This document shows, piece by piece, positions 1,669-59,100 of a DNA stretch of 64,000 nt. The stretch is from contig NC_092679.1 in assembly GCF_964355755.1 (NCBI RefSeq), forward strand, positions 7,130,001-7,194,000. The letters run 5' to 3'. This DNA comes from Antedon mediterranea. Lineage: Eukaryota; Echinodermata; Crinoidea; Comatulida; Antedonidae. The position numbers and the translations under genes were made by a program. Below the pieces are notes generated by a model. The model was not told the DNA's origin. It did not search any database and saw only the letters and a list, made by a program, of their open reading frames with translations. Each line of letters starts with the position of its first letter. The first letter of the stretch is position 1.

Positions 1669-2508
1669 TATAGGCTTAAGTTTATGTACCGCCAACGTAA
1701 GATACTAAGTTGTAAGAATCGTAAACTATTATGCTCTGCTCTCATCCAATGTGTTTTTGACTATGCTGCATCTTCTTGGTTCTGTGGAACCAGTAAAGCT
1801 ATTCAAAGAAAACTACAAATTGCTCAAAACAAAATGGTTAGACTCATAAAAGGAGTTGAACCCAGAAGACATATAGGTGCTGATCAATTAGACGATTATG
1901 GATTGTTAAATGTAAAATATCGAGTAAAGTTCTTGCAAATTAGCCAAGTTCATAAAATATTTATGGGCAGAAGTGCTTCATACCTAAACGAAAACTTTCG
2001 TAGAGTTAATAACTTACATGGTCACTTCACTCGTGGTAGTAAACTCAATTTCGTTGTACCTGAAGTACAAGGCATAGAATGCAATACATTCTATTTTAAT
2101 GCAATCAGAGAATGGAATAACCTTCCTGACTATATTAAACAAATTTCCAACACATCTAAATTTAAAACTGAATTGAAACAATATTACAAAATTAAACATT
2201 ATAAATTATTATTGTGCCATTATATCAGATGTTTTGCTTATATGCTTATATATTTATGAACCCCGTCTTATAATGTTTGTTTTGTTAAAATTATAATTAC
2301 TATCTTTTTAGGGACCACATTGGAATTAAGTTGTTTTACTTTAAACGAATTTATGTGTTTTCCCGTGCATCGTCAGACTTCATTAATCCCGCCATTTTTA
2401 TTTGCTTTTTTGATGTATTTTAATATTTAAGGTGATTATATATATTATTGATGTATTTTTAATGTTATTGAGATGCCAAATAAATGAAAGAAAAAGAAAG
2501 AAAGAAAG
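1669..2508 (+). mobile_element. Non-LTR retrotransposon 3' fragment with RT C-terminus
   Basis: The open frame up to 2259 (first Met 1684, homology from about 1669) encodes the end of a LINE reverse transcriptase. It contains FDYAASSWFCG, KLQIAQNKMVRLIKG, HIGADQL, LNVKYRVKFLQI, the HFTRGS segment, the NTFYFNAIREWNNLP segment (the W-N-x-L-P mark of these elements) and FKTELKQYY near the end. A 3' UTR follows, closing in a GAAA-rich simple tail at about 2484-2508. The 5' part of the polymerase, the catalytic motifs and any endonuclease are absent, so this is a 5'-truncated insertion. It lies back to back with the minus-strand fragment on its left and is a different subfamily. Confidence 0.8.
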
Positions 2509-2929
2509 TGACATTAAACATTATTTTTAAAAGTTTTTTTCACGGCCTATTAGAAATGGCCTATTCTATTCTATAAGTCTTTTTCTTTTACTATTAATCT
2601 TCATCTTTTTTTCGTGTTTTTTGAGGTACAATCTATCTATCTATAACAGTACTCATACTCATACTATACATACAAACATCAAACTTACCGTACACGGAAT
2701 TCATAATATTTAAACAGTAAATGCAAAATTGCTCAAAATAAAGAGGTTTGGAATTTTTTTTAACAAAATATGTACAATTTAAACAAAATTAATTGCGGAA
2801 AAAAAACGGGATGGAGCATTCGCACTGGTGGTAGTTCGCCCTCTTACAATTTCCTTCTTTTATTTTCGAAAAGTTGAAATTTTTCTTTACTTCTCGCGTT
2901 CGCAATTAACATTTTTGACAAGAACGAAA
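2509..2929. promoter_or_regulatory. 5' flank and presumed promoter/5' UTR of first TMEM179-like gene
   Basis: No coding sequence recognised. The stretch lies between the LINE tail and the TMEM179-like start codon, so it should carry the promoter and 5' UTR. I saw no clear TATA box at a sensible distance. The 2828-2929 part is open in the coding frame but lacks an upstream in-frame ATG. Confidence 0.4.
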
Positions 2930-5900
2930 ATGGATACAGTTTTATTATTTGTTCAAGCTGTTCTTTTAGCTGCAGCTGGGTTTGCTGGATTTGCGGCTGC
3001 TATAACAATAGGTATTTCAAGGGTAAGTGATATTTGGTACTTTATTGAAGTTTATAATCTTATAGGCTAGCTAGGGCTAGGCCCAAGTTTTTCAAGTAAA
3101 TCGCGATCGCGGTAAGACAGGTTGTTTGGCAGGCAGAACGATCACATGTTATTTGGGGGAGTGGCCTCTCTTCTGCTGCTACACTGTGCAAGACAGCCAA
3201 ACAGGCTAGCGTGCTGTATAGTAGAGCAGTTAGTGCCATAAAAATAGCCAAGTTGTGCACTTTATTACCAAAGCATGAAACTTGCCACAAAGTTTCTTTG
3301 ATGTATATAGATTCAAAATATCGGGGGGTGCCAAGTGTCCAACGTCCGGTATGGCGGCCATCTTGATTTCAAAATGGCCACCATAAAAACAAAAAGTCTT
3401 CATATCTTGGCAACTATAAACAGTAGAGACTTGATTCTGGTGTTAAATTGTTCACAAACCACATATTTCTATTTGCTCTAATGAAAAGTTTCGTCAAAAA
3501 ATGACCGGAAATGACGTTTCTCCCAGTTTGACCTTTGACCTCTTATCTGTATATCTCAGTAACTACTGATCATTTTCAATCGATTTTGGTGTCATTTTGT
3601 TCAGAATAGAGACATTTATATTTGTAGTAATGAAACATTTTCACATAAAATGACTGGAAATACAATTTATAACCTTTGACATATATAATATGTGAACATA
3701 CTGTATGTGGTTTACATTGGTATAAATGCACCTAATTTTTTTTAACGAAATAAATGACACTTAAAAAATGAGCAGGAATTATTATTCTGAATTTTTGACT
3801 TTTGATGTGATAGGATAGGCGTAAAGTATGACAGATCACTGAGAAACAGCAATCACTGAGCTCATCTATGCCGACTTGTTTGCTAAACTGTGATGTGTCA
3901 ATCGTTAGATAAAAGTTTTGGTCCTCTCTCCATCATCTTTTTTTTTTGCAATGTATTATACCATATGGACAATTGTCTGAAATAAAAGTTGAATTGAATT
4001 GTTAGATGCCATTTGGAAATATTTTTGATGTAAAGTAGCATTCTTTCGTTGGCCTCTTTGATGTTGCATATGAGACAAGTTCGGAAAGTTTTCATTTTCA
4101 TGAGTTAAGAGAATACCGTCTTTCAAACTTACTACAAACTTATCCTGCATTTGTGCAGTAGACCTACTTTCATTAGTCAGAAACTCAGATAATTCTTGTT
4201 CATTTTCGTTGCATCTAAAAAAATGTACTCCATTTTTATGGTAATGGGCCTTTGATTTTCCTCGATTTTCTCTACTCATTGATTTTTTAGCAAAATCCGA
4301 ACCAAATCAATTCGTAAAAGACATCTCAATATAATTATTCAAGTAATTCTCAAATTAGTGACATGGACCTACAATATACTGTTCTGTACAAGACCTTTTT
4401 AGGCATCCACTTGTGGACTTTCACTTTGAAGGTCTTGGTCTCCTAATCATACAAGAAACAATGTCTGATTTAATCAATCAAAGTAGTGGGTCCAGACAAA
4501 GAAGGGGATGTAAGACCATCCACAGACAAAGAAAGGGGTATAAGACCATCACAGACAAAGAAGGGGGTATAAGACCATCCACAGACAAAGAAGGGGGTAT
4601 AAGACCATCCATACACAAAGAAAGGGGTGTAAGGCCATCCATACACAAAGAAAGGGGTGTAAGGCCATCTACAGACAAAGAAGGGGGTGTAGGACCATCC
4701 ACAGAGAAAGAAGGGGTGTAAGACCATCCACAGACAAAGAAGAGGGTATAAGACCATCCACAGACAAAGAAGGGGGTATAAGACCATCCACAGACAAAGA
4801 AGGGGGTATAAGACCATCACAGACAAAGAAGGGGGTATAAGACCATCCACAGACAAAGAAGGGGGTATAAGACTATCCACAGACAAAGAAGGGGGTGTAA
4901 GACCATCCACAGACAAAGAAGGGGGTGTAAGACCATCCACAGACAAAGAAGGGGGTATAAGACCATCCATACACAAAGAAAGGGGTGTAAGGCCATCCAT
5001 ACACAAAGAAAGGGGTGTAAGGCCATCTACAGACAAAGAAGGGGGTGTAGGACCATCCACAGAGAAAGAAGGGGATGTAAGACCATCCACAGACAAAGAA
5101 GGGGGTATAAGACCATCACAGACAAAGAAGGGGGTATAAGACCATCCACAGACAAAGAAGGGGGTATAAGACTATCCACAGACAAAGAAGGGGGTGTAAG
5201 ACCATCCACAGACAAAGAAGGGGGTGTAAGACCATCCACAGACAAAGAAGGGGGTATAAGACCATCCATACACAAAGAAAGGGGTATAAGACCATCCATA
5301 CACAAAGAAAGGGGTGTAAGGCCATCTACAGACAAAGAAGGGGGTGTAGGACCATCCACAGAGAAAGAAGGGGTGTAAGACCATCCACAGACAAAGAAGA
5401 AAGGGGTGTAGGACCGTCCACAGACAAAGAAAGGGGTGTAATACCATCCACACAGAAAGAAAGGGGTGTAAGACCATCCACACAGAAAGAAAGGGGTATA
5501 AGACCATCCATACACAAAGAAAGGGGTGTAAGGCCATCTACAGACAAAGAAGGGGGTGTAGGACCATCCACAGAGAAAGAAGGGGTGTAAGACCATCCAC
5601 AGACAAAGAAGAAAGGGGTGTAGGACCGTCCACAGACAAAGAAAGGGGTGTAAGACCATCCACACAGAAAGAAAGGGGTGTAAGACCATCCACACACAAA
5701 AAAAGGGGTGTAATACCATCAACAGACAAAGAAAAGGGTGTAATACCATCAACAGACAAAGCAAAGGGGTGTAATACCATCAACAGACAAGGAAGGGGAT
5801 ATAAGACCGTCCACAGGCACAGAAGGGGTGTAAGACCGTCCACAGACAAAGAAAGCGGTGTAAGACCGTCCACAGACAAAGAAGGGGGTGTAGGACCGTC

Positions 5901-8900
5901 CACAGACAAAGAAGGGGGTGTAAGACCACCCACTGACAAAGAAAGGGTATAGGACCACTTACAGACAAAGAAGGGGGTATAAGACCACCCACAGACAAAG
6001 AAGGGGGTGTAAGACCATCCACACACAAAAAAGGGATTATAAGACCATCTACAGACAAAGAAGGGGGTATAAGACCATCCACAGACAAAGAAGGGGGTAT
6101 AAGACCATCCACAGAGAAAGAAGGAGGTGTAAGACCATCCACAGACAAAGAAGGGGTGTAAGACCATCCACACACAAAGAAGGAGGTGTAAGACCACCCA
6201 CAGACAAAGAAGGGGGTATAAGACCATCCACAGAGAAAGAAGGAGGTGTAAGACCATCCACAGACAAAGAAGGGGTGTAAGGCCATCCACAGACAAAGAA
6301 GGAGGTGTAAGACCATCCACAGACAAAGAAGGGGGTGTAAGACCATCCACACACAAAAAAGGGATTATAAGACCATCTACAGACAAAGAAGGGGGTATAA
6401 GACCATCCACAGACAAAGAAGGGGGTATAAGACCATCCACAGAGAAAGAAGGAGGTGTAAGACCATCCACAGACAAAGAAGGGGTGTAAGACCATCCACA
6501 CACAAAGAAAGGGGTGTAATACCACCCACAGACAAAGAAGGGGTATAAGACCATCCATAGAGAAAGAAGGAGGTGTAAGACCATCCACAAACAAAGAAAG
6601 GGGTGTAATACCATCAACAGACAAAAAAGGGGGTATAAGACCGTCCACAGACAAAGAAAGGGGTTCACGACCATCCACAGACAAAGAAGGGGGTATAAGA
6701 CCATCCATAGACAACGAATGGGGTGTAGGACTATCCACAGACAAAGAAGGGGGTGTAGGACCATCCACATACAAAGAAGGGAGTGTAGGACCATCCACAG
6801 ACAAAGAAGGGGTGTAAGACCATCTACATACAAAGAAAGGGGTGTAAGATCATCCACAGACAAAGAAGCGGGTATAAGACCATCCACAGACAAAGAAGGG
6901 GGGTTTAAGACCATCCACGGACAAAGAAGCGGGTATAAGACCATCCACAGACAAAGAAGCGGGTATAAGACTATCCACAGACAAGGAAGGGGGGTATAAG
7001 ACCATCCACAGACAAAGAATGTGGTATAAGACCATCTACAGACAAAGAAGGAGGGGTAGGACCATATTACCGAGGAAGCATAGGCCTACAAAAAGAAGAT
7101 GCAATCAAAATAGGCCTACCAGCCACTTGGAAAACAATAAATTGTAGAATAACTGAGGCTTGATTGTTGAAATATAAAGGGTTCTTTGTAAGGTCATTAA
7201 TAATATATTGATATAAACACGATCATCATACTATTCATTTGACATTCAAATACAGTCTATCTCGAAAAGAAGCTCATACTATCACCTTTTCGAGGTTTGA
7301 CGGTATTCCATAACATGTATGTTATTTCCTCTGTCAAACTATTAAAACTTTTAGCGAATCAGAAGGTGCCAACATCGTTGAACTATTAATGGTACCACCA
7401 AGCACAATATTTACCAATTTTATGTACAATATACAATTTAAGTACATTAATCATTTAATATAATTACGCCTATCAGGTCAAAGTTCAAAATTAGGTGCAT
7501 TTAAGACCACCAAAAACCACATACAGTATATTCACATAATTAAAAATCAATAATTAAATGTCAAAGGTCATAAATTGTATTTCCGGTCATTTTATGTGAA
7601 AATGTTTCATTACTACAAATATAAATGTATTTATTCTGAACAAAATGACACCAAAATCGATTGAAAATGACCAGTAGTTACAGAGATATACAAATACGAG
7701 GTCAAAGGTCAAACTGAAAGAAACGTCATTTCCGGTCATTTTTGGACGAAAATTTTCATTAGAGTAAATAGAAATATATAGTTTGTGAACAATTTGAGAC
7801 CAGCATTAAGTCTCTAATGTGTATAGTTGCCAAGATATGAACATTTTTTGTTTTTATGGTGGCCATTTTGAAATCAAGATGGCCGCCATACCGGACGTTG
7901 GACACTTGGCACCCCCCGATATTTTGAATCTATATACATTATAGAAACTTTGTGCCAAGTTTGATGCTTTGGTAATAAAATGCACAGCTCATGTCATTAA
8001 CTGCTCTACTAGTAGGACAGAACAATACAGTGCCCAAACTATTAGTGGTTGGTTGTATTAGTAATTTAGCTTTTAGATGTTTTAACTTGTAAATTTTCAT
8101 TATTTTTATTTTGGAGATTATCAAAAATAAAATCATTTGATCGAACCAATGAGTGTATGTCGTTTAGGCTATAGGCCTAGCTAGGCTAGTGACCATCTAT
8201 TTACTGTACATACATTATTGAACAAACATATCTATCTTCTATTGATTATTTGGAATTCTAAACAAAATAATAAAAAATATATAATAAATGTATGCCGGCC
8301 AAAACGAATTGAGGTCGATATGCACTGCTGTGACCGTTTCACTGCATTATTTAATATTATTTTACCTATTAATTTTTAAAAAGTTGAGATTTCTTTTAAA
8401 AGAAATTTCTCAACATGTTAGATTAGAATTGTGTTGATTGTTAATCACAAACACCACTAAATAACAAGGAAATGTATAAAAAGTTGTTGCTTAGTCAAGC
8501 AAAACCTATATAATACAGAAAGTATTATTTTTCACCAACTCATTTTTTTATATAGCGGCGATAAATAATCATTCTCACAAAGACGACAATATTCATTTTA
8601 ATGAAAAAAAAAGCTTCTTTGAATAAAAAGGTTTTTAGATGAGATTTTAAACAATGTGTACACCTTTCTATTATATTAAAATGAGCATTGTGTAAAAATT
8701 CATGATAAAGGAAGGATGTGGCTGCTTTGATCTGCCTACTACAGCCTTTTTTTTAAGATACGATGGTTAGGGATTAAACATAGTTTAGTATTCTACAGGC
8801 CTTCTCCGTGTTCAGTACAGACCTACTAATCAGAATTCGAATCACTATTATATCCCTTTTCCAAATCGTTATTGGAGCAAGGGGGGAAAAACAGAAACTC

Positions 8901-11900: not shown

Positions 11901-14198
11901 GTCCTTCCTTTCTAAACATTTTATTATCCTTGTTGCTTTCCTTGATGTTTTCTCTATTCATTGATCTTTTCATAGATTACTGATAGCCATTGATTCACAA
12001 TACAATTTAAAAAAACCATTATCATTCATTTGCTTGAATTATTGAATGTTGACTATGATACCATAACAATCATCAAAAGCTTACTTGATTAAATGTAGAA
12101 CACTTCCTGGTTATCGGTCCTGTTTTGGGTAGCTATTCTGTGTAGCTCAATCATACGCCGTTGTCATGATAATAAAATAGATGGAGGGCCGAGGTCAGAA
12201 GAGGAAAAACCAATTTTACAGCCTATTTAAATAGAAGGTGGTTCATACACTTAGTTTTAGTTCTAATTCCTAATTTTTGGTTGCATGGTCCCATTTTGTT
12301 TATTATCCAACACAAATAGATTGCATAGAATAGAAACCTAAGACACTAATAATACAATACTATATGTTGGTTATTGTATCATTGATTGAATATAGTTATT
12401 CATGTCATTTTTGTTGATCTACTTTTAAAATGAAATAAGTTTTTAACAGGAAAGATTGCAATTTACATTCTTCTCTGTTTTTTTATCATGAATCATGGGA
12501 AATAAGCAATAATGGGACCCTGCTGAAGGCAAAACTCTGTCTACACTATTAAACTAGTTTGACAAAAAAAGTGTGATGTACTCAAATATGGTGGTGATAT
12601 GCCCAAATATTGTAGTGATATAACATGTCCATATATGGGCACATCACTTTTTTTTGTCACAAAATGTTTGATAGTGTAGACAGGGCTCAATGCATGCACT
12701 AACATGCATTCTGTCTGAATGTGCAATAGCAATCTGCGTACAAAATCTTGTCATGTTCATCTCGATTTTCTTTCATCCAATCTACAATATCAGTAATGTA
12801 CTGGATTTTAGATGGGTATTTTTTTGTGTGAAAGAGAACTACTAATTAAATTCACATCCATCCAAACATTGAGTAGGATTACTAATATTTAAAAAAAAAT
12901 TCTAATAGAATATTGCAGAAAGCATAATACACTGTGTCATGTGCCGATAATTGAATGCATGTCCAAATAGCATGATAATACTTCAGCATCTTGTATAAGA
13001 GCACTCTAAAAGCATGCCAGTATGCTAATAGATAAGGCTGTATTGCAACTCAACTCAATTATCTACTACAGTAGATTCTCAGTAAGAACTGCAATGAGGA
13101 AACTGAAAATTAAATTGAAAAGTAAATTGAAAAGTAAATTGAAAATAGAATGACATGTAAAGTTCAGGTCATTGGATTTAATCTACTTTTAACTGTAATA
13201 AATTATGTTTCTTCATACACTTTTACATTATCTTCTTATGTATTTATTATTATTGATGATTATTTTATGATTTATTATGATGATAATATTAACTTTAAGG
13301 TATTTTTGCTTCATCACACACTGTTATGGTTACTTACAGACAGAGTATGAGACCTATCATTTTGTGTTATCCAATGTATATACAGTGAAAACCCCCAATT
13401 GGGACATAACTATAGTGGACACCTATTAATAAAACATCACTAGTATTCAGGGGAAACCCCTGTTAAGAGGACATGACTATTTAGGGGACACCCCTATTAA
13501 AGGGACATCACTAGTATTCAGGGGACACCCCTATTAAGAGGACATCACTATTTAGGGGACACGCCTATTAATGGAACATCACTAGTATTCAGGGGACACG
13601 CCTATTAAGAGGACATGACTATTTAGGGGACACCCCTATTAAGGGGACATCACTATCCAGAGGACACCCTATTAAAGGGACATCACTATTTAGAGGACAC
13701 GCCTATTAATGGAACATCACTAGTATTCAGGGGACACCTATTAAAGGGACATCACTAATATTCAGGGGACACCCCTATTAAGAGGACATCACTATTCAGA
13801 GGACACCCTATTAATGGGACATCACTATTCAGGGGACACCTCTATTAAGGGGACATCACTTTTCAGGGGACACCCCTATTAAGGGGACATCGAATATTAA
13901 GTGGACATCACTATTCCGGGGACAACCCTATTAATAGGAAATTTGTTGGGGTCCTGGGGGGTTCTGCTTAGCCTGTAATTGAAAAAACATTACCAAACCA
14001 ACCCCTTACACAATTTTCTGACCGATTGTGTGTAGCATTTTAAAAATTATGTTTTATTTGCAGGGTGCATCGTGGGCGTCCTTTTTATTTTGGTTAGCAA
14101 TAGCAATCTTAACAATTGTTCGACGTATTAGAGATACATCTTCTACAACGTTGGATCCGAACTCTGATAAAGCGCCAATTACGGATGTTGTCATCTAG
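2930..14198 (+). CDS. TMEM179-family four-pass membrane protein (copy 1), 5 exons
   Basis: Joined exons: 2930-3022, 9101-9288, 9746-9877, 10025-10136, 14064-14198 (660 nt, 219 aa), all with GT..AG borders and intron phases 0, 2, 2, 0. Exon 1 is an N-terminal membrane segment (residues 5-28). Exon 2 begins NSFGGNCILYAE, like the N-G-H-D-F-R-G-R-C-L-L-F start of the loop in TMEM179, and carries two N-glycosylation sequons (N48, N59), Cys38/Cys63 and a second membrane segment. Exon 3 has the third segment with VVSVGF and FC. Exon 5 has GASWASFFWLAIAILTIV, matching the LWASWLAWLA fourth segment. TMEM179/179B are poorly understood four-pass proteins, with TMEM179 neuronal in vertebrates. Human TMEM179B is about the same length. 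Whether this copy corresponds to TMEM179 or 179B is not resolved. It ends in ITDVVI. Introns 1 and 4 are full of repeats. Confidence 0.87.
3826..4484. other. Inner left spacer of the foldback element
   Basis: Between the left arm and the satellite. At 3940-4003 there is a plus-strand sequence resembling a LINE 3' end (TCTGAAATAAAAG followed by a TTGAATTGAATTG tail). A minus-strand open stretch (about 3956-4279; internal stretch NENEQELSEFLTNE) resembles nothing I recognise; it could be a remnant of element coding sequence or chance. Confidence 0.4.
4485..7065. repeat. 30-bp tandem satellite, about 86 units
   Basis: A near-continuous tandem array of the unit AGACCATCCACAGACAAAGA followed by AGGGGGTGTA (30 bp), with GTGTA/GTATA variants and 29- or 31-bp units from single indels. 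Because 30 is a multiple of three, frames stay open for hundreds of bases; on the minus strand they read as decapeptide repeats such as LSVDGLTPPS or VCGWSYTPFF. These are by-products of the repeat, not genes. Blocks of units are themselves duplicated, see findings. Confidence 0.95.
7066..7463. other. Inner right spacer of the foldback element
   Basis: AT-rich unique-looking sequence between the satellite and the right inverted arm; no ORF, RNA or known repeat recognised. Confidence 0.4.
8016..9100. other. Remainder of TMEM179-like intron 1
   Basis: AT-rich intronic sequence with no recognised gene. Ends with a good pyrimidine tract and TTTGCAG acceptor at 9094-9100. Confidence 0.4.
9310..9436. 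mobile_element. Small palindromic MITE, copy 1
   Basis: Starts AAGCTCTGTCTACACTGTCA and contains CACTACCATATTTGGGCACA followed by TCACACTTTTTTTGTCAAA. The same terminal and inner motifs occur at 12530-12690 and 25134-25313. The right terminus of this copy is degenerate. Lies in intron 2 of the TMEM179-like gene. Confidence 0.7.
9540..9612 (+). mobile_element. Probable non-LTR retroelement 3' end with hairpin
   Basis: Holds CTGGGTCCGCTGGGAGAACA, then GTCTTCGACTGAAGAGGCT and ACCCAGTATAAGGAATAAAT. CTGGGT pairs with ACCCAG and CTTCG.ACTGAAG forms an inner stem, so the RNA would fold into a hairpin just before an A-rich tail. This looks like the conserved 3' terminus of a retroposed element reduced to its last about 70 bp. 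No coding part remains. Confidence 0.45.
10570..11945 (-). mobile_element. Non-LTR retrotransposon 3' fragment, split by a MITE
   Basis: On the minus strand, 11945-11620 encodes the end of a LINE polymerase (RKATRIIKCLERKDTSYFHR, LSIDDLFKLHRL, LKGYCSHSFNEY, TSERCPGRLLR, PRLWEQIP). At 11620 the frame breaks at TTAA. It resumes at the TTAA at 10765-10768, and skipping the 851 bp in between keeps the frame open to a stop shortly after a KHY motif, the usual C-terminal end of such ORFs. A 3' UTR and an AATAATAAT-type tail (about 10589-10604, minus sense) follow. The element is thus an old 5'-truncated LINE later hit by a DNA transposon. Confidence 0.75.
10769..11619. mobile_element. piggyBac-like MITE in TTAA target
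   Basis: Bounded by TTAA at 10765-10768 and 11620-11623. The ends are inverted: CTCTTTCACTGCG on the left, and on the right the reverse of AACCCTTTCACTGCGGAGC. TTAA target duplication with CCYTTNNACTGC-type ends is the mark of piggyBac transposons. No transposase ORF is present in 851 bp, so it is non-autonomous. The left end carries two copies of a TACCCGGTA..TACCGGGTA palindrome. Inside are two CGCCCTCTATAG blocks and a TGACGTCACACGACGTCA block at about 11413-11430. Confidence 0.8.
12530..12692. mobile_element. Small palindromic MITE, copy 2 (best preserved)
   Basis: Left end AAAACTCTGTCTACACTATT, right end GATAGTGTAGACAGGGCT, which is its inverse. Inside, GTGTGATGTACTCAAATATG is mirrored by CATATATGGGCACATCAC. 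About 160 bp, no coding capacity. Lies in intron 4 of the TMEM179-like gene. Confidence 0.75.
13395..13945. repeat. 34-bp tandem satellite, about 16 units
   Basis: Repeats of AGGGGACACCCCTATTAAGG followed by GGACATCACTATTC, 34 bp, with a 37-bp variant carrying ACTAGTATTC. Each unit is itself a diverged pair of GGGGACA half-units. It lies in intron 4 of the TMEM179-like gene, ending about 120 bp before the last exon. Confidence 0.9.
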
Positions 14199-22984: not shown

Positions 22985-23738
22985 TGTGTAGTGTACGGAG
23001 GACGGGCAAGTGATTATGTCTTGAGAGAATGTCCAAACAAAATCGAAGAATGATAATAAAAATATACAGTATTCTGTTATTGAAATGATTTTTTAAAAGA
23101 TGTATTCCCAAAAACATGAAAAATGAAGATTAATAAAATCCCACTTTTTTAAAAAAAGTTATTCACTTCTGTAAAAAAAAAAATATTTCACATATAAAAA
23201 GACAAAAGAAACCTTTAATTTTTTCAGGTAAATAATTTGTTTTCCAATCCAGTTTTTGTCCATGTGAGCATGGAGGTACCTCCATGATGTGAGTAACTAT
23301 TATATAAAGTGGCATACTAAAAAAACATTATTTTAACAACCCCTTTCTTTGGATCCCGAATGTTAAATAGGACAAAGGTAAAGGTACCACCAAAACCACT
23401 GACTCGTTGCGCTTGAGTGATCACAGAGAAACACTTCCGCTTCCCTTTGTTTAGACAAGTAGAGATGTTATCATTTTCTATGAGCAAAGTCCAAACTGGA
23501 AATGGTTTATTTCCTATGTATATGTATGAGGTGATCAAAAAGTCGTTTTACAACATTCATCATACAGTACTGGTAGGACTAGGCCTACTACTTCACTATA
23601 AACAACAAACAGACTTGTGCTTTGTGTCGTTGGTGTGTGTGGTGGGATCTGGTGATTCATCTTTCACGCATGATTTGACGCTGAATAAGTAAATTCCATC
23701 ATCACCTTATTTTTAATCAGAAGGTCAATAACAACAGA
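22985..23738. promoter_or_regulatory. 5' flank of second TMEM179-like gene
   Basis: No coding sequence recognised; presumed promoter and 5' UTR. A small inverted repeat TGGAGGTACCTCCA lies at about 23270-23283. Confidence 0.4.
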
Positions 23739-26700
23739 ATGGCGGCGAATGCTGTGGAATCCCGGTACTCAATTGTGGAAATTATCCTCCTTATCCTGGC
23801 CTGTGGAGGAAATGTCGCTACTTTGACGTTTCTTGCGATGTCAAGGGTAAGTTATTTGGCAGAGTACATTTTTACAGACAGGATCGGATCGAGGTGGTGT
23901 GGTTTTGGGTCTTTCGATGTAAGAAGAGATGAGTGACATGAGACCGTTTCGTTAGTAGCACTAGCTAGTATAAGTAGTACTACAGTACAGTAGTAGAGTA
24001 TGACTGACGTAGTCTAGGCCTAACAAACTATATCTATCTTTAATATGATTATGATGTTAATAATTAAAACAGTCCTACCTATCTAGTCAGCAAAATCAAA
24101 TCAAATTAGATTAGCTCTGAAACAATTTTTTCCAAAATAAACACTTGTCTAGAGCGGCATGACTAAAACTAAATTATAATATTAATAAAGTACCTGTATG
24201 TGACATAATTGTGATACTTCCTGCTGTGCATATCATATAAGCCAAGGAGATAAATAATATTTTAATAATCTTTTCTTTAAAGCATGACTATGACGGATCG
24301 TGTCTATTGTTTGCTGATATCCAGGTCATGTCAAAGAATGCCGCCATCTTTCACTCCAGTAAATGTCGCTTTCCAGTCAGTGTTCATATCGCCGCATTTT
24401 TCTACGCTGCTTTTTGTATAGCCTACTGGCTGTACAAATTAATACGTGGACGTGAAGGCTCGTATGTATCATTATTTTTGTTTAATAATAAATGTCTGTT
24501 TAATCTTCTTGTGAATAATCTCATCCTCTCCGGCATTGGGTTCATTATGTGTCATCACTACGCTATAATTGTTTAGCAACTTTCCTCTTATTGTTTGGTT
24601 GCCAACTTTTATTTTTGAGCTGTTTCTCTTTTTATTGCCAGGTCTTGGTTTTGATGTCCTATAGGAAATGAGTAATAGTAGCATCCTTAACAAAACCATA
24701 TTGTGTGGAGTTTTCTATAAAACCTTATTTCTAATACATTGCTGAATATTATTCAATTATTCCTTTCACTTCACTAACTTCACTAATTACATTGTGTTTG
24801 CTCTTTAAACCTGTGCAATAATAAGTTTTCTTTTTCTGGAAATCTTGCACATTAATTTGGTCAGGTGACTTCATAATACATTTATTAACATTGGAACAAG
24901 CTATAAATCATACGTACCACAGTAAAAAATTGTGGTTCAGTATATACTTGGAAAAAAAAATGTTTATTATCAGACAAATAAAACTGTGACTAAATTATAT
25001 ATTTTGTATATCAAATTTTAAAAATGATAATTAAATTTGTTTTTGTTTCTATGCCTAACCTTGTATTGCATTGTACATGGCTTGTGTTTTTAAGTATCAG
25101 GAAATGAAATGTCATTTAAATCCTATATTGCTGTCAGACAACAAAGTTATACACTATCAAACGTTATGTGACAAAAAAATGCAATGTGCCAATATATGGA
25201 CATGATAATGTCATATCACTACCATATTTGGGCATATCACTACCATGTTCGGCGGGCACATCACATTTTTTTGTCAAACTAGTTTAATAATGTAGGCCTA
25301 GACAGAGCTTTAGATTGATTGTTTGATAGCTATGCTGATTATTTTCAATTGATTTACTGCTTATGTTTTTGTGAATCAGTTGACAATTATTCTTTCGTTC
25401 AATTGTAATGTTATCTTTATTCATTTTACAGGCAATTTCTTAAAATAGCAAGTATTTTTGCCTATGGCATTTTAAGTGTTTTACTGTTCATTGTTTCTAT
25501 ATTGATAACAATGGGATTGAAGAGTTTGTGCGATGAAATACATGGAGTGGCGCCAATTAGTCTTCCTCAGTAAGTGATCACCAGCATTTCTACATCCTCA
25601 TTTCATTTTTTAGTACAGTACTTAGTTTACTAAGCTAACCATTAAAATTTAGCCTTTGAAATCTAGCCCAGCTCATACCTAGACCTAGTCCAGCTCATAT
25701 CTAGATTATTCAAATCAAATTGATTTCATACGTAATGTAAATATGTAACAGCTTCACATATATAATACTAGTGTCACATGTGATACCAATGTGACATAGA
25801 GAGAATTGGCAAGTGACAATCTGTGTTGTTGAATTTTAAATAAAATTTAATAATATACTGTTAGATTAACAATCATTTTTTCTTTACTATATCTCATGTA
25901 ACTCTAAAAACATAAATTAAACAAACAATTCTATGATTCATATTTACATGACTAATTGTTAGACAAACAGATATGTCTTGTAATTTGATAATACCATTAT
26001 AACTACACAGTGCCAAGTAATTATATTTAATGACCTTTATACTCATTGCCATACAATTACACTGGGTCTGTTTCTGATGCATAACGCAAATTAACTGTTT
26101 ATTATAAAATGGATTAAAAATAACAAGACTGCATTTCTGCTCAATTTGTGCTTTGAAATAACTGGTTAAATCAATGGGTGGTCGTTGACAAAAATTGTTA
26201 AAATTACCCAAAATGCAATTGGTCCTGGCGGTTACTGCCATGTAGTTGAACCATTATTTTGTGTTGCAGCAATAACCGGTTAAATGGGGTTCTAACACCG
26301 AATTAAATTGGTCTTTTTAACCGGTTATTTTGCGCTGCCTTTTAACCGGTTACCACAAATTTGTCCTGTTTCTGCTCCTAAGAAAATGGAGTTAATTTAT
26401 TCACTTTATACAGCAAAACAGCCCCACATTGTAGCAAAAACTATAGCAAGGCAATTTCCATTGACTATATTATAGTTAAACTGTTCATTGTATTATAACT
26501 GCATATTTGTATATAAATGTCTTGAAGTATAAACAAAATTGTATGAATTTTTTTCTGATTTTATTTTGCCTTACAGTTGTAGAGATTATCAGACATTTGG
26601 GGATATTTTTAAAAACCCAGGACTGAAACGCTTTTACGATATTCTGAACGATGCACAGGTACAGTAAAACAATAAACAGACATGCCTGCTTATTATGTAA

Positions 26701-55690: not shown

Positions 55691-55855
55691 CAGAAGTGGC
55701 TCTGACTTTATTATTAAAACTGCAAATGTGGAGGATATATACATCTTTAACAGAAAAAAAACCAAATACTGACATAGGCCTATTCCTAAATTTATTGTAA
55801 AATAGAAGTCATTAAATATTATAATAAAGTAATATATCGACGATATCGACAAGTA

Positions 55856-56117
55856 TTGGTCCTGATCAATGAAAAACAAGTCTTGGTCCTGATAAATGAA
55901 AAACAAGTCTTGGTCCTGATAAATGAAAAACAAATCTTGGTCCTGATAAATGAAAAACAAGTCTTGGTCCTGATAAATGAAAAACAAGTCTTGGTCCTGA
56001 TAAATGAAAAACAAATCTTGGTCCTGATAAATGAAAAACAAATCTTGGTCCTGATAAATGAAAAACAAATCTTGGTCCTGATAAATGAAAAACAAATCTT
56101 GGTCCTGATAAATGAAA
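55856..56117. repeat. 27-bp tandem repeat, about 9.7 units
   Basis: Units of TTGGTCCTGATAAATGAAAA plus ACAAGTC or ACAAATC, nearly identical. Since 27 is a multiple of three, open frames appear on both strands (plus: VLINEKQ repeats; minus: FIYQDQDLF repeats). These are repeat artefacts rather than genes. Confidence 0.95.
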
Positions 56118-59100
56118 GACACAGAATGTTGAGCTTCCAGTTGAATTACCCAATTTTCCATTTATTTGTTTCTTTTAATTAACAAATTTTATCAGATTAG
56201 ATGTGATTTGATGTTTTATTTTGGGAATCTCATTGCTTCACCATGTCTAGACCTTTTTAAAATCAACGAATTTTTAAATAGAAACCAAAAGAAATTTGTT
56301 CAAACCTCATTCCATATTTTTCCATATTGTTTTGGGTGGTGGTTTGACCTGTAATGACCCCTGTAACCCTTAACACAAAAACATGGAACAGGTTCTGTTA
56401 TGGGTATTGTTGTTCCGGTATTGTGAACCACAATTTCAAGACCTTATTAGAACAATCAAAAATCAAGAAGGTTATTAGCCAGCAGGCCGTCAGGTTATCG
56501 ATATTAGATTGACACCCTGATAAAAACAGTTTGTAACCGAATGTTACTGTACAGTCTGTTTGGTTCTTAATAATTATTCATTAGGTTATAGAGATACATC
56601 CAACGTGCACATATTTTAACGTAAGCATTACGTGCACGTTGCGTTTGCGCGGATCACATATTCATTCTTGTGTTGAGTTCAAATCTTGTTATTGTTTTTT
56701 AATTACAATATGTGACCCAAGGCAACATGAAAATGAAATGCAATAATAAAACAATGTGACAATTTAATAATAATAAAATATAACATTATGTTCAACTCCA
56801 TTTTTATTGCTTATATTAGTATTTCGTTGATATAGTACAGGCCTACTAATTATCAATAGAGATACTAGTTTCCAAGAAAGGAATATTCGGTGCTCTATGC
56901 CTACACATATTGCTCATACCTCATACATAGCAATATCCAAGTATGACAGACATAAATAAATAAATAATAGGCTGCAATATATTATTTGCTGCTACTCTAC
57001 TGTACGGTACAAACATAGACAGCACTAAACAACAAATTTGTTCTTCAGGTCATAATGGCGTAATCTTTTCTGTGCGCCTTTTCTAAAGTACACGTGCACA
57101 TTGCATTTGTTGTTCGGATAACTAAATGGTTAACGTGAAAAGTTTAAATCTAGTTTGTTTCATAGGGTTATAGTCTCCATAAACCTAAATTCATATTATT
57201 TATATTAAGGGTGTTTAGTTTAACCTTGCAAAATAATTTCATAAGCTATCCGTGTTATGCAATATCGTTCACCATCTATCTATCACCATTCAGCCGATTC
57301 TGAATATCAACCGGCTTCTTACTAAACAATATGGCGGCTATTGATTCAGTGTACCAATGGGCAATTGCTGACTCCTGTTCCAAAGTCCAGTTCTGTTGCA
57401 TGAATAAGCGATGGTTCAGTCATTTAACAAATTACGTATGTTTAGAAATATGTTATTAGCATTTTTCATTATACAATCACAGGTAGACTTTGACCCATGT
57501 CGAATAAAAAATAAGTCCGGTCTGAAAAGAAACAAAAAGACAACACAATGTAATGGTTATCTATATTGCTCAAGTATAAAAAGAATATTCTTTTTAAACG
57601 TACCGTTCTATATTTGCATTGTTTTTTGGAAAATAAAAAAGATTTTTTAAAATAGATAAAAGGAATATAAACAAGCATCCATAAGATGGCCGAATTATAA
57701 ATTATTTTAAAATTGCATAACATTATACAATTCTATAATATAATCAAACGATTAGGCGTACAAAATTAACAAAAATGACGAAGCCAGGCCCTCTTGTACA
57801 CTACGATATGTTTCTATTATTAAGTATTTAATTCTAAATAATATGAATTTAGCTTATAAGCCTAGACCATAATATTCATTCTTTTATTTATGATATTATA
57901 TCCATATAAAGAAAATTAAATTAACAAGAAAAACATATTATAATTAAAAACATAATGAAATATTCACGTAGCTATTCAAATGCAATATGAGACATAACCT
58001 ACGGACAAAGAAAACTATTTCGTTTTTTAAAGAATATGTTCAGAGAATCAAAAGACGTATATATACTCGGCGACATCTTCCCTTTGTTTGATTCGATGCG
58101 AAACAACGTAAATTGCTGACTTATATTATTTTGTTAAGCTACGAAATCGACGAAAAATCTCGAATTTAGATATATTAATTAATCTTATTAAATCCAATCT
58201 AAATGTACAGATTATATACTTGTTTATTAAATTATAAACTATTTTCATAAGAGTTTTAAAAACTGTATTTTCGTTCGATTTATATTCGGGTTGTACCGTA
58301 AGTAGATGGTGAGAGATGGATGGACTGAGTACATTATGTATTCAACGCATAATTTGAGCTTCTTAGCTCGCTTTGCATCTTATCTCTACTGGGAATTCGT
58401 GTCGAAAGATACAACAATGGCAAGTAGACAAGCTCTGCTGTAATGTAACGTATTACCGGTACAACACAGGGTTTACTGCTGCTATAACAAGGGAGGGGAC
58501 CCCTTCCTTTTTGGGGATTTAGAGGGCTATACCTGGTACCATACAAAATGATTGTTCGTTTTTATCTGTATTTTTACTCGAATCGAAATAGATCAAATCA
58601 AATTAAACCATTTAATTTAATTTCATTTTATAATCTTATACAATTTTCGTAGAATCGGAGCTAAAAATGGAAAGAGCTTTTGTTTAAATCAAGTTAAACT
58701 TGTGTATAAAAAAACAAATACAATAATATGAACAACACAACTGGGAACATTTAAGAAACAACATATTAAATGTCGATTTTCAAATAATCTTATAAAGGAA
58801 AAATGTATTCGTTCAACATTTACTAAAGGATGAAAACAATAATTGACAAAAATGAAAAAAAAACCAAAGGGCTTCCGCCTATAAGAAAATTTACAAAAGC
58901 TAATAAATACTGTATAAAAAAGATTTAAAAAAAAAAACAAATAAATTTAATTTAAACAAGAAAAATGGTTAACATTACCAAAGAATACACGTTATTTATT
59001 TTTACATTTAAAAAAACTGGAACTGTACAACATTGTCATTTTAAAATTAAATTAGGCTTATAATATTATAAAATGCAATATCAACATTTCCGTTAGGCCT

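What the first reader, a model, noticed from the sequence alone, without database searches (positions are those of the whole stretch)
3215..8015. 4.8 kb foldback element with a satellite core inside a gene intron
Long inverted arms of about 550-600 bp with a 2.6 kb 30-bp satellite between them form a giant potential hairpin within intron 1 of a TMEM179-like gene. The arrangement recalls sea urchin TU foldback elements, but here the tandem repeat is in the core and not in the arms.
Basis: partly seen in the sequence, partly recalled or inferred. Interest (0 to 1): 0.6.

Follow-up and report, generated by a model that had tools for sequence, protein, structure and literature searches.

The report
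Transposon whose satellite came from transposase
The 4.8-kb hairpin-like element is one copy of a recently active, non-autonomous DNA transposon, and the repeated 30-letter "satellite" in its core is a ten-codon piece of the parent transposon's own transposase gene that was multiplied in place and then carried around the genome.

Summary
The structure is real: a transposon at 3219-8011 with 3-bp target duplications, ~500-bp inverted arms (93%) and an 86-copy 30-bp array at 4493-7065. It is one of at least ~100 copies, found on every large contig. TSDs are 3 bp in 21 of 23 copies and 4 bp in 2, two empty sites were found, and arms are up to 100% identical between chromosomes, so transposition was recent. 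Every sampled array lies inside this element.
The arms are ordinary long TIRs, shared (90%) with one 6.9-kb coding relative (C1:25508126-25515049) whose protein carries an XPG/FEN-like motif. Together with the TSDs this points to the AcademX lineage.
The 30-bp unit is derived from the transposase gene: codons TPPSLSEDGR match it 25/30 (none of 2000 shuffles exceeded 23) at the right place and orientation. A decayed copy (C3:28649904-28653111) carries the array inside the transposase gene, with coding sequence on both sides. The satellite therefore arose in situ; later deletion fused it to the 5' region, and transposition spread it. The window copy grew by block duplications.
It is not a TU/foldback element. 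The closest precedent is Chenopodium CACTA tnp2 and its 40-bp satellite. Novelty lies in the superfamily, the host and the preserved intermediates.

The parts
3216..3218 (.). Left target-site duplication GTA
3219..3743 (+). Left terminal inverted repeat (arm); homologous to the 3' arm of the coding element L042 (467/517 identical)
3858..3902 (-). Remnant of transposase ORF2 (L042 5792-5836, 38/45 identical)
3993..4472 (-). Remnant of transposase ORF2 downstream of the array's source codons (L042 about 5217-5762), with deletions
4493..7065 (-). 30-bp tandem array, 86 units, derived from transposase codons TPPSLSEDGR (L042 about 5168-5200); unit on this strand ACACCCCCTTCTTTGTCTGTGGATGGTCTT
7066..7541 (-). 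5' non-coding region of the parent element (7069-7461 = L068 826-434 at 89.5%; 7306-7541 = L042 700-943)
7515..8011 (-). Right terminal inverted repeat (arm); homologous to the 5' arm of L042 (443/488 identical)
8012..8014 (.). Right target-site duplication GTA
2930..3022 (+). Putative first coding exon of the host gene (MDTVLLFVQAVLLAAAGFAGFAAAITIGISR then GTAAG); the element lies in the following intron
   Evidence: gene identity not confirmed by Pfam

Best explanation
A non-autonomous DNA transposon, most likely of the AcademX lineage, has about 500-bp TIRs and is moved in trans by the transposase of a coding relative, making 3-bp (sometimes 4-bp) target duplications. SHOWN: its core is colinear, in reverse orientation, with the coding element L042. 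The 30-bp array stands exactly where ten transposase codons (TPPSLSEDGR) stand in L042. In the decayed copy L068 the array is still flanked on both sides by transposase sequence. Full-length copies share the same order of individually recognisable units, and they differ by duplicated blocks of units. INFERRED: (1) the 30-bp segment was tandemly duplicated in situ in an ancestral transposase gene by slippage or repair synthesis; (2) a deletion removed the coding sequence between the array and the 5' region; (3) this derivative was trans-mobilised repeatedly and recently, the array riding as cargo; (4) arrays then change length by unequal exchange, or by slippage during gap repair, in blocks of several to about 30 units. 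The window copy has 86 units against about 47-50 in its closest relatives, from such duplications. No host function is indicated.
For: Family, ends and TSD. Two empty sites aligned across the junction, 55/58 and 65/70 identical. Coding relative with the same 14-bp ends, a TAA TSD and open frames of 520 and 816 codons. Colinearity. Unit against L042: 25/30; maximum 23 in 1000 dinucleotide shuffles of the element and 23 in 1000 shuffled units; 18-19 in other transposase families; it lies 17 nt from the independently mapped end of homology, on the expected strand. The source motif PPSL..G.L is conserved in related transposases. Array inside the transposase gene with coding sequence on both sides. 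Conserved unit order and block duplications. Arrays only inside the element: 5 of 5 loci picked by array alone carry arms; 46 of 48 checked array hits lie inside exact-end pairs, the other two beside an arm. Arms 99.9-100% identical among copies on C2, C4 and C6.
Against: L042's arms are only about 90% identical to those of the young copies, so L042 itself may not be the helper; no closer coding copy was found. L068 is a single, heavily decayed locus without both ends in hand. Superfamily assignment rests on TSD length plus a motif-level XPG/FEN resemblance (hhalign probability 42%), not on comparison with a reference Academ element. The coding frame is not kept through the arrays.
Confidence: 0.88

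Rival explanations
1. The element captured a pre-existing genomic satellite during gap repair, and the resemblance to the transposase gene is coincidence.
For: Capture of tandem repeats by transposons has been proposed for Xenopus miDNA4 (PMC12628747) and for one array in Chenopodium quinoa CACTA (PMC8978399).
Against: 25/30 match to transposase codons at the colinear position and orientation; array embedded in the transposase gene with coding sequence on both sides in L068; no array found outside the family.
Confidence: 0.04
2. A classical foldback (FB/TU-type) element whose long arms arose by arm expansion and which moves by hairpin-associated events.
For: Long inverted arms, non-coding core, strong hairpin potential.
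Against: The coding relative has equally long arms (480/520 identical); there are no tandem repeats in the arms; TSD is 3 bp in 21 of 23 copies, not the 8-10 bp reported for Tetris.
Confidence: 0.03
3. The array formed at a deletion junction (abortive gap repair) in the same event that created the non-autonomous element, rather than beforehand inside the gene.
For: In the young subfamily the array borders the deletion.
Against: L068 has the array with transposase sequence on both sides, so array and upstream coding sequence coexisted. The order of events could still differ if L068 is a recombinant.
Confidence: 0.08
4. The array is functional for transposition, for example as extra transposase-binding sites that increase mobility.
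For: Extra binding sites in tandem arrays are known for Galileo (cited in PMC4079207); every TIR-flanked copy read in full here carries an array except the coding element.
Against: The unit has no match in the arms above the chance level (16-18 of 30), and array length varies 20-86 units among copies.
Confidence: 0.05

Closest known systems
Chenopodium CACTA-like element Jozin, whose tnp2 transposase fragment gave the 40-bp CficCl-61-40 satellite (PMC7320549)
   Same: A short (about 40 bp) piece of a transposase gene in deletion derivatives became the monomer of a tandem array; the start monomer is the coding fragment.
   Different: Plant and CACTA. There the satellite is the most abundant satellite family of the genome, with arrays attached to transposase fragments. 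Here the arrays were found only inside mobile elements with TIRs, unit order is conserved between copies, and a copy with transposase sequence on both sides of the array exists.
AcademX DNA transposons
   Same: 3- or 4-bp TSD (PMC10045372); nuclease-like domain with E-A-D...DSDV...G-C/A-D...G-x-G-K motifs as in FEN1, XPG and EXO1 of the same genome.
   Different: No reference Academ sequence was available for comparison; the satellite-bearing derivative has no open transposase gene.
Tetris foldback element of Drosophila virilis (PMC4079207)
   Same: Non-autonomous, long inverted arms, carries tandem repeats that vary in number.
   Different: Tandem repeats lie in the TIRs, TSD 8-10 bp, no coding relative known, repeats seeded free satellite arrays.
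Xenopus miDNA4 Tc1/mariner MITE with internal satellite (in PMC12628747 and PMC9659126)
   Same: Tandem array between the TIRs of a non-autonomous element, copy number variable.
   Different: Origin attributed to capture of a pre-existing repeat; different superfamily; short MITE.
Sea urchin TU foldback elements (own knowledge; sea urchin foldbacks are mentioned in PMC4079207)
   Same: Long inverted repeats, hairpin potential.
   Different: In TU the tandem repeats are in the arms; here arms are repeat-free and the array is in the core.

Membership tests
AcademX DNA transposons | 3- or 4-bp target-site duplication | tested here: met
   21 of 23 copies 3 bp, 2 of 23 4 bp
AcademX DNA transposons | XPG-type nuclease domain in the transposase | tested here: inconclusive
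   No Pfam or PDB sequence hit; motif resemblance to the host's FEN1/XPG/EXO1 and hhalign score 27.2 (P 2.6e-4, probability 42%) against a maximum of 15.8 in 100 column shuffles
AcademX DNA transposons | Phylogenetic placement with reference Academ transposases | not testable with these tools
   No Repbase sequences held; the AcademH paper is not in the library
Foldback (FB/TU) elements | Long inverted repeats | tested here: met
Foldback (FB/TU) elements | Arms built of tandem repeats | tested here: not met
   TRF finds none in the arms
Foldback (FB/TU) elements | 8-10-bp TSD as reported for the foldback Tetris | tested here: not met
   3-bp or 4-bp TSD in all 23 copies
Classical satellite DNA | Long free-standing arrays, homogenised by concerted evolution | tested here: not met
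   All sampled arrays lie inside the element; unit order, not homogeneity, is conserved between loci
TE-derived tandem repeat (transposase-gene source) | Monomer homologous to and colinear with a segment of the parent element | tested here: met

The most novel reading that the evidence does not exclude
The array began as an in-frame ten-residue repeat (TPPSLSVDGL)n, 30 bp and so frame-preserving, inside a still working transposase gene. Transposase tandem repeats would then be a birth stage of satellites, and the conserved unit order of these arrays would record the order of transposition and array growth.
Probability: 0.15. Interest if true: 0.65.

Novelty: new variant of a known kind. Interest (0 to 1): 0.47.

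Why it matters
How satellites arise from transposons, by capture of existing repeats or by amplification of the element's own sequence, is debated. Most reported cases use TIRs, LTRs or UTRs, with few coding examples (PMC9659126). Here one genome preserves the series: coding element with a single 30-bp source, decayed copy with the array inside the gene, and deletion derivatives that have spread the array across the chromosomes. Because each unit is recognisable, array growth after transposition can be read unit by unit.

Tried and rejected
Pfam, PDB-sequence and XPG_I-in-genome searches did not classify the transposase. The key Academ paper is not held, and a search for DUF6589 with transposase found no paper. 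TMEM179 identity of the host gene was not confirmed by Pfam. A search for single-copy intermediates found only L042 and L068. I first thought the array was born at the deletion breakpoint; L068 made me revise this to in situ expansion followed by deletion. L058's low arm identity probably reflects a defect in its left arm, not age. L043's joined flanks gave no empty site across the junction. No further genome letters could be cut.

Full report
OBSERVATION. The structure exists as described. Inverted arms lie at 3251-3685 / 7555-7989 (93%) with an outward and inward extension, and a 30-bp tandem array of 85.9 copies lies at 4493-7065. Comparison with other copies fixes the exact element at 3219-8011 (4793 bp), with ends TAGTAGAGCAGTTA...TAACTGCTCTACTA and the duplication GTA on both sides.

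IT IS A TRANSPOSON FAMILY. The window lies in a 354-Mb genome of 18 contigs. The left arm finds 1447 first-look candidates, and the 40 scored are 96-100% identical and spread over all large contigs. The terminal 14-mer occurs 226 times (reversed control 2). Among the first 100 listed places there are 41 convergent pairs and no divergent pair within 15 kb, with a median element length of 3675 bp. Of 23 copies with both ends read, 21 have a 3-bp and 2 a 4-bp target duplication; one of the 21, L025, was read because the automatic end-finder took a false end. Two copies inserted in local tandem repeats could be compared with an unoccupied unit of the same repeat: after joining the flanks, 55/58 and 65/70 bases match across the junction. 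Arms of copies on C2, C4 and C6 are 99.9-100% identical, so the burst is recent; the window copy is 99.0-99.6% identical to the closest copies. Several copies carry other elements nested inside them. None of this fits an assembly artefact.

THE ARMS ARE ORDINARY TIRs. The longest pairs of ends were fetched. One, C1:25508126-25515049 (L042), is a coding element with the same 14-bp ends, a TAA duplication, and open frames of 520 and 816 codons with intervening exon-like stretches. Its own arms are 480/520 identical, so long arms belong to the parent family and did not grow in a foldback process. It is the only near-complete coding copy of this family found; the other protein hits are 24-58% identical and belong to other families.

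WHAT SUPERFAMILY. AcademX elements are reported to make 3- or 4-bp TSDs and to encode a nuclease, whereas AcademH makes 9-10 bp (PMC10045372). The 816-codon frame and its relatives contain EAD...DSDV...G(C/A)DTTS..GxGK, matching motifs in this genome's own FEN1, XPG and EXO1 exons. Profile comparison scores 27.2 (P 2.6e-4, probability 42%), against at most 15.8 for 100 column-shuffled controls. Pfam and PDB sequence searches do not reach it. I therefore regard AcademX as likely but not proven.

WHERE THE SATELLITE COMES FROM. The window element is colinear with L042 in reverse orientation: left arm = L042 3' arm; 3858-3902 and 3993-4472 = ORF2 at L042 5217-5836; 7306-7541 = L042 700-943; right arm = 5' arm. 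The array stands where L042 has ACACCCCCGTCTTTGTCTGAAGATGGTCGA, codons TPPSLSEDGR; the array's unit on that strand is ACACCCCCTTCTTTGTCTGTGGATGGTCTT (TPPSLSVDGL). The match is 25/30. The maximum is 23 in 1000 dinucleotide shuffles of the element and 23 in 1000 shuffled units, and 21 in the rest of the window. Other transposase families give 18-19. It lies 17 nt beyond the independently found end of homology, on the expected strand. The motif PPSL..G.L is conserved in related transposases.

THE INTERMEDIATE. A search for the coding sequence just upstream of the source segment found only L042 and one decayed copy, L068 (C3:28649904-28653111). In L068, transposase sequence matching L042 4595-5198 runs directly into an array of 17.7 units (1688-2219). 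After the array the transposase sequence resumes (L042 5239-5289, 5401-5758 and on to the gene's end), followed by arm sequence. L068 also matches the window's right inner region (7069-7461) at 89.5%. So the array expanded inside the transposase gene; the young subfamily later lost the stretch between the array and the 5' region.

HOW ARRAYS BEHAVE. Arrays of 17 copies were cut into 861 units of 241 kinds. Unlike a homogenised satellite, units keep their individual identity and order: copies on different chromosomes share the order written as LTAMCBAID...EkEQWYH. Changes are block duplications (for example units 38-45 in L030, about 30 units in L034) and deletions. Mapped on the 50-unit array of L029, the window's 86 units are the same order with blocks of units 2-9 and 28-31 repeated. 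Array length among the first fetched full-length copies ranges from 20 to 86 units. Every array checked lies inside this family. The array is thus cargo copied by transposition, with local growth afterwards.

MECHANISM AND ITS LIMITS. Shown: family, ends, TSD, colinearity, source of the unit, array inside the gene in L068, conserved order, block duplications. Inferred: slippage or repair synthesis as the first duplication step; trans-mobilisation by an L042-like protein; unequal exchange or gap-repair slippage for block changes. L042's arms are 10% diverged from the young copies, so the actual helper may be another copy, now lost or absent from the assembly.

COMPARISON AND NOVELTY. The nearest precedent is the Chenopodium CACTA-like element Jozin, where an approximately 40-bp tnp2 transposase fragment started the CficCl-61-40 satellite (PMC7320549). 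The principle is therefore known. The TU/foldback comparison fails on TSD length and on the position of the repeats.

Noticed in passing
L062 (G000:C4:26892400-26902000): Composite of two family members whose arrays meet head to head (2201-3593 and 3600-4894 in opposite orientation), with three intact ends found; arrays seem to mediate rearrangement.
   Followed up: partly
L039 430-2470: A separate element of about 2 kb with short inverted ends (GGTATCCCAATGAAA) is inserted in the 30-bp array.
   Followed up: no
L045 1628-5541; L040 5329-9199: Nested insertions inside family members: gag-pol-type frames (LTR retrotransposon) in L045 and non-LTR retrotransposon frames in L040.
   Followed up: no
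L043 4600-6275: Nested non-family sequence with several short tandem repeats (52, 40 and 20 bp) interrupting the arm.
   Followed up: no
window 13434-13934: Minisatellite of 17/34/71-bp period in the intron of the same host gene; no long inverted repeats around it.
   Followed up: partly
window 55849-56121: 27-bp repeat, 10 copies, 97% identical, with no long inverted repeats around it; looks recently expanded.
   Followed up: partly
window 12099-12227 and 14022-14195: Two similar candidate last exons (SWLSVLFWVAIL.. and SWASFLFWLAIA..) of the host gene, possibly alternative terminal exons.
   Followed up: no
window 23685-25570: Exon-like frames resembling a second, related small membrane-protein gene downstream.
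   Followed up: no
window 1669-2256: A 196-codon frame that reads like the C-terminal end of a non-LTR reverse transcriptase, just upstream of the host gene; no Pfam hit.
   Followed up: no
genome-wide: Many other coding families of the same transposase superfamily (frames of 1000-1555 codons) are present, so this superfamily is diverse in this genome.
   Followed up: no
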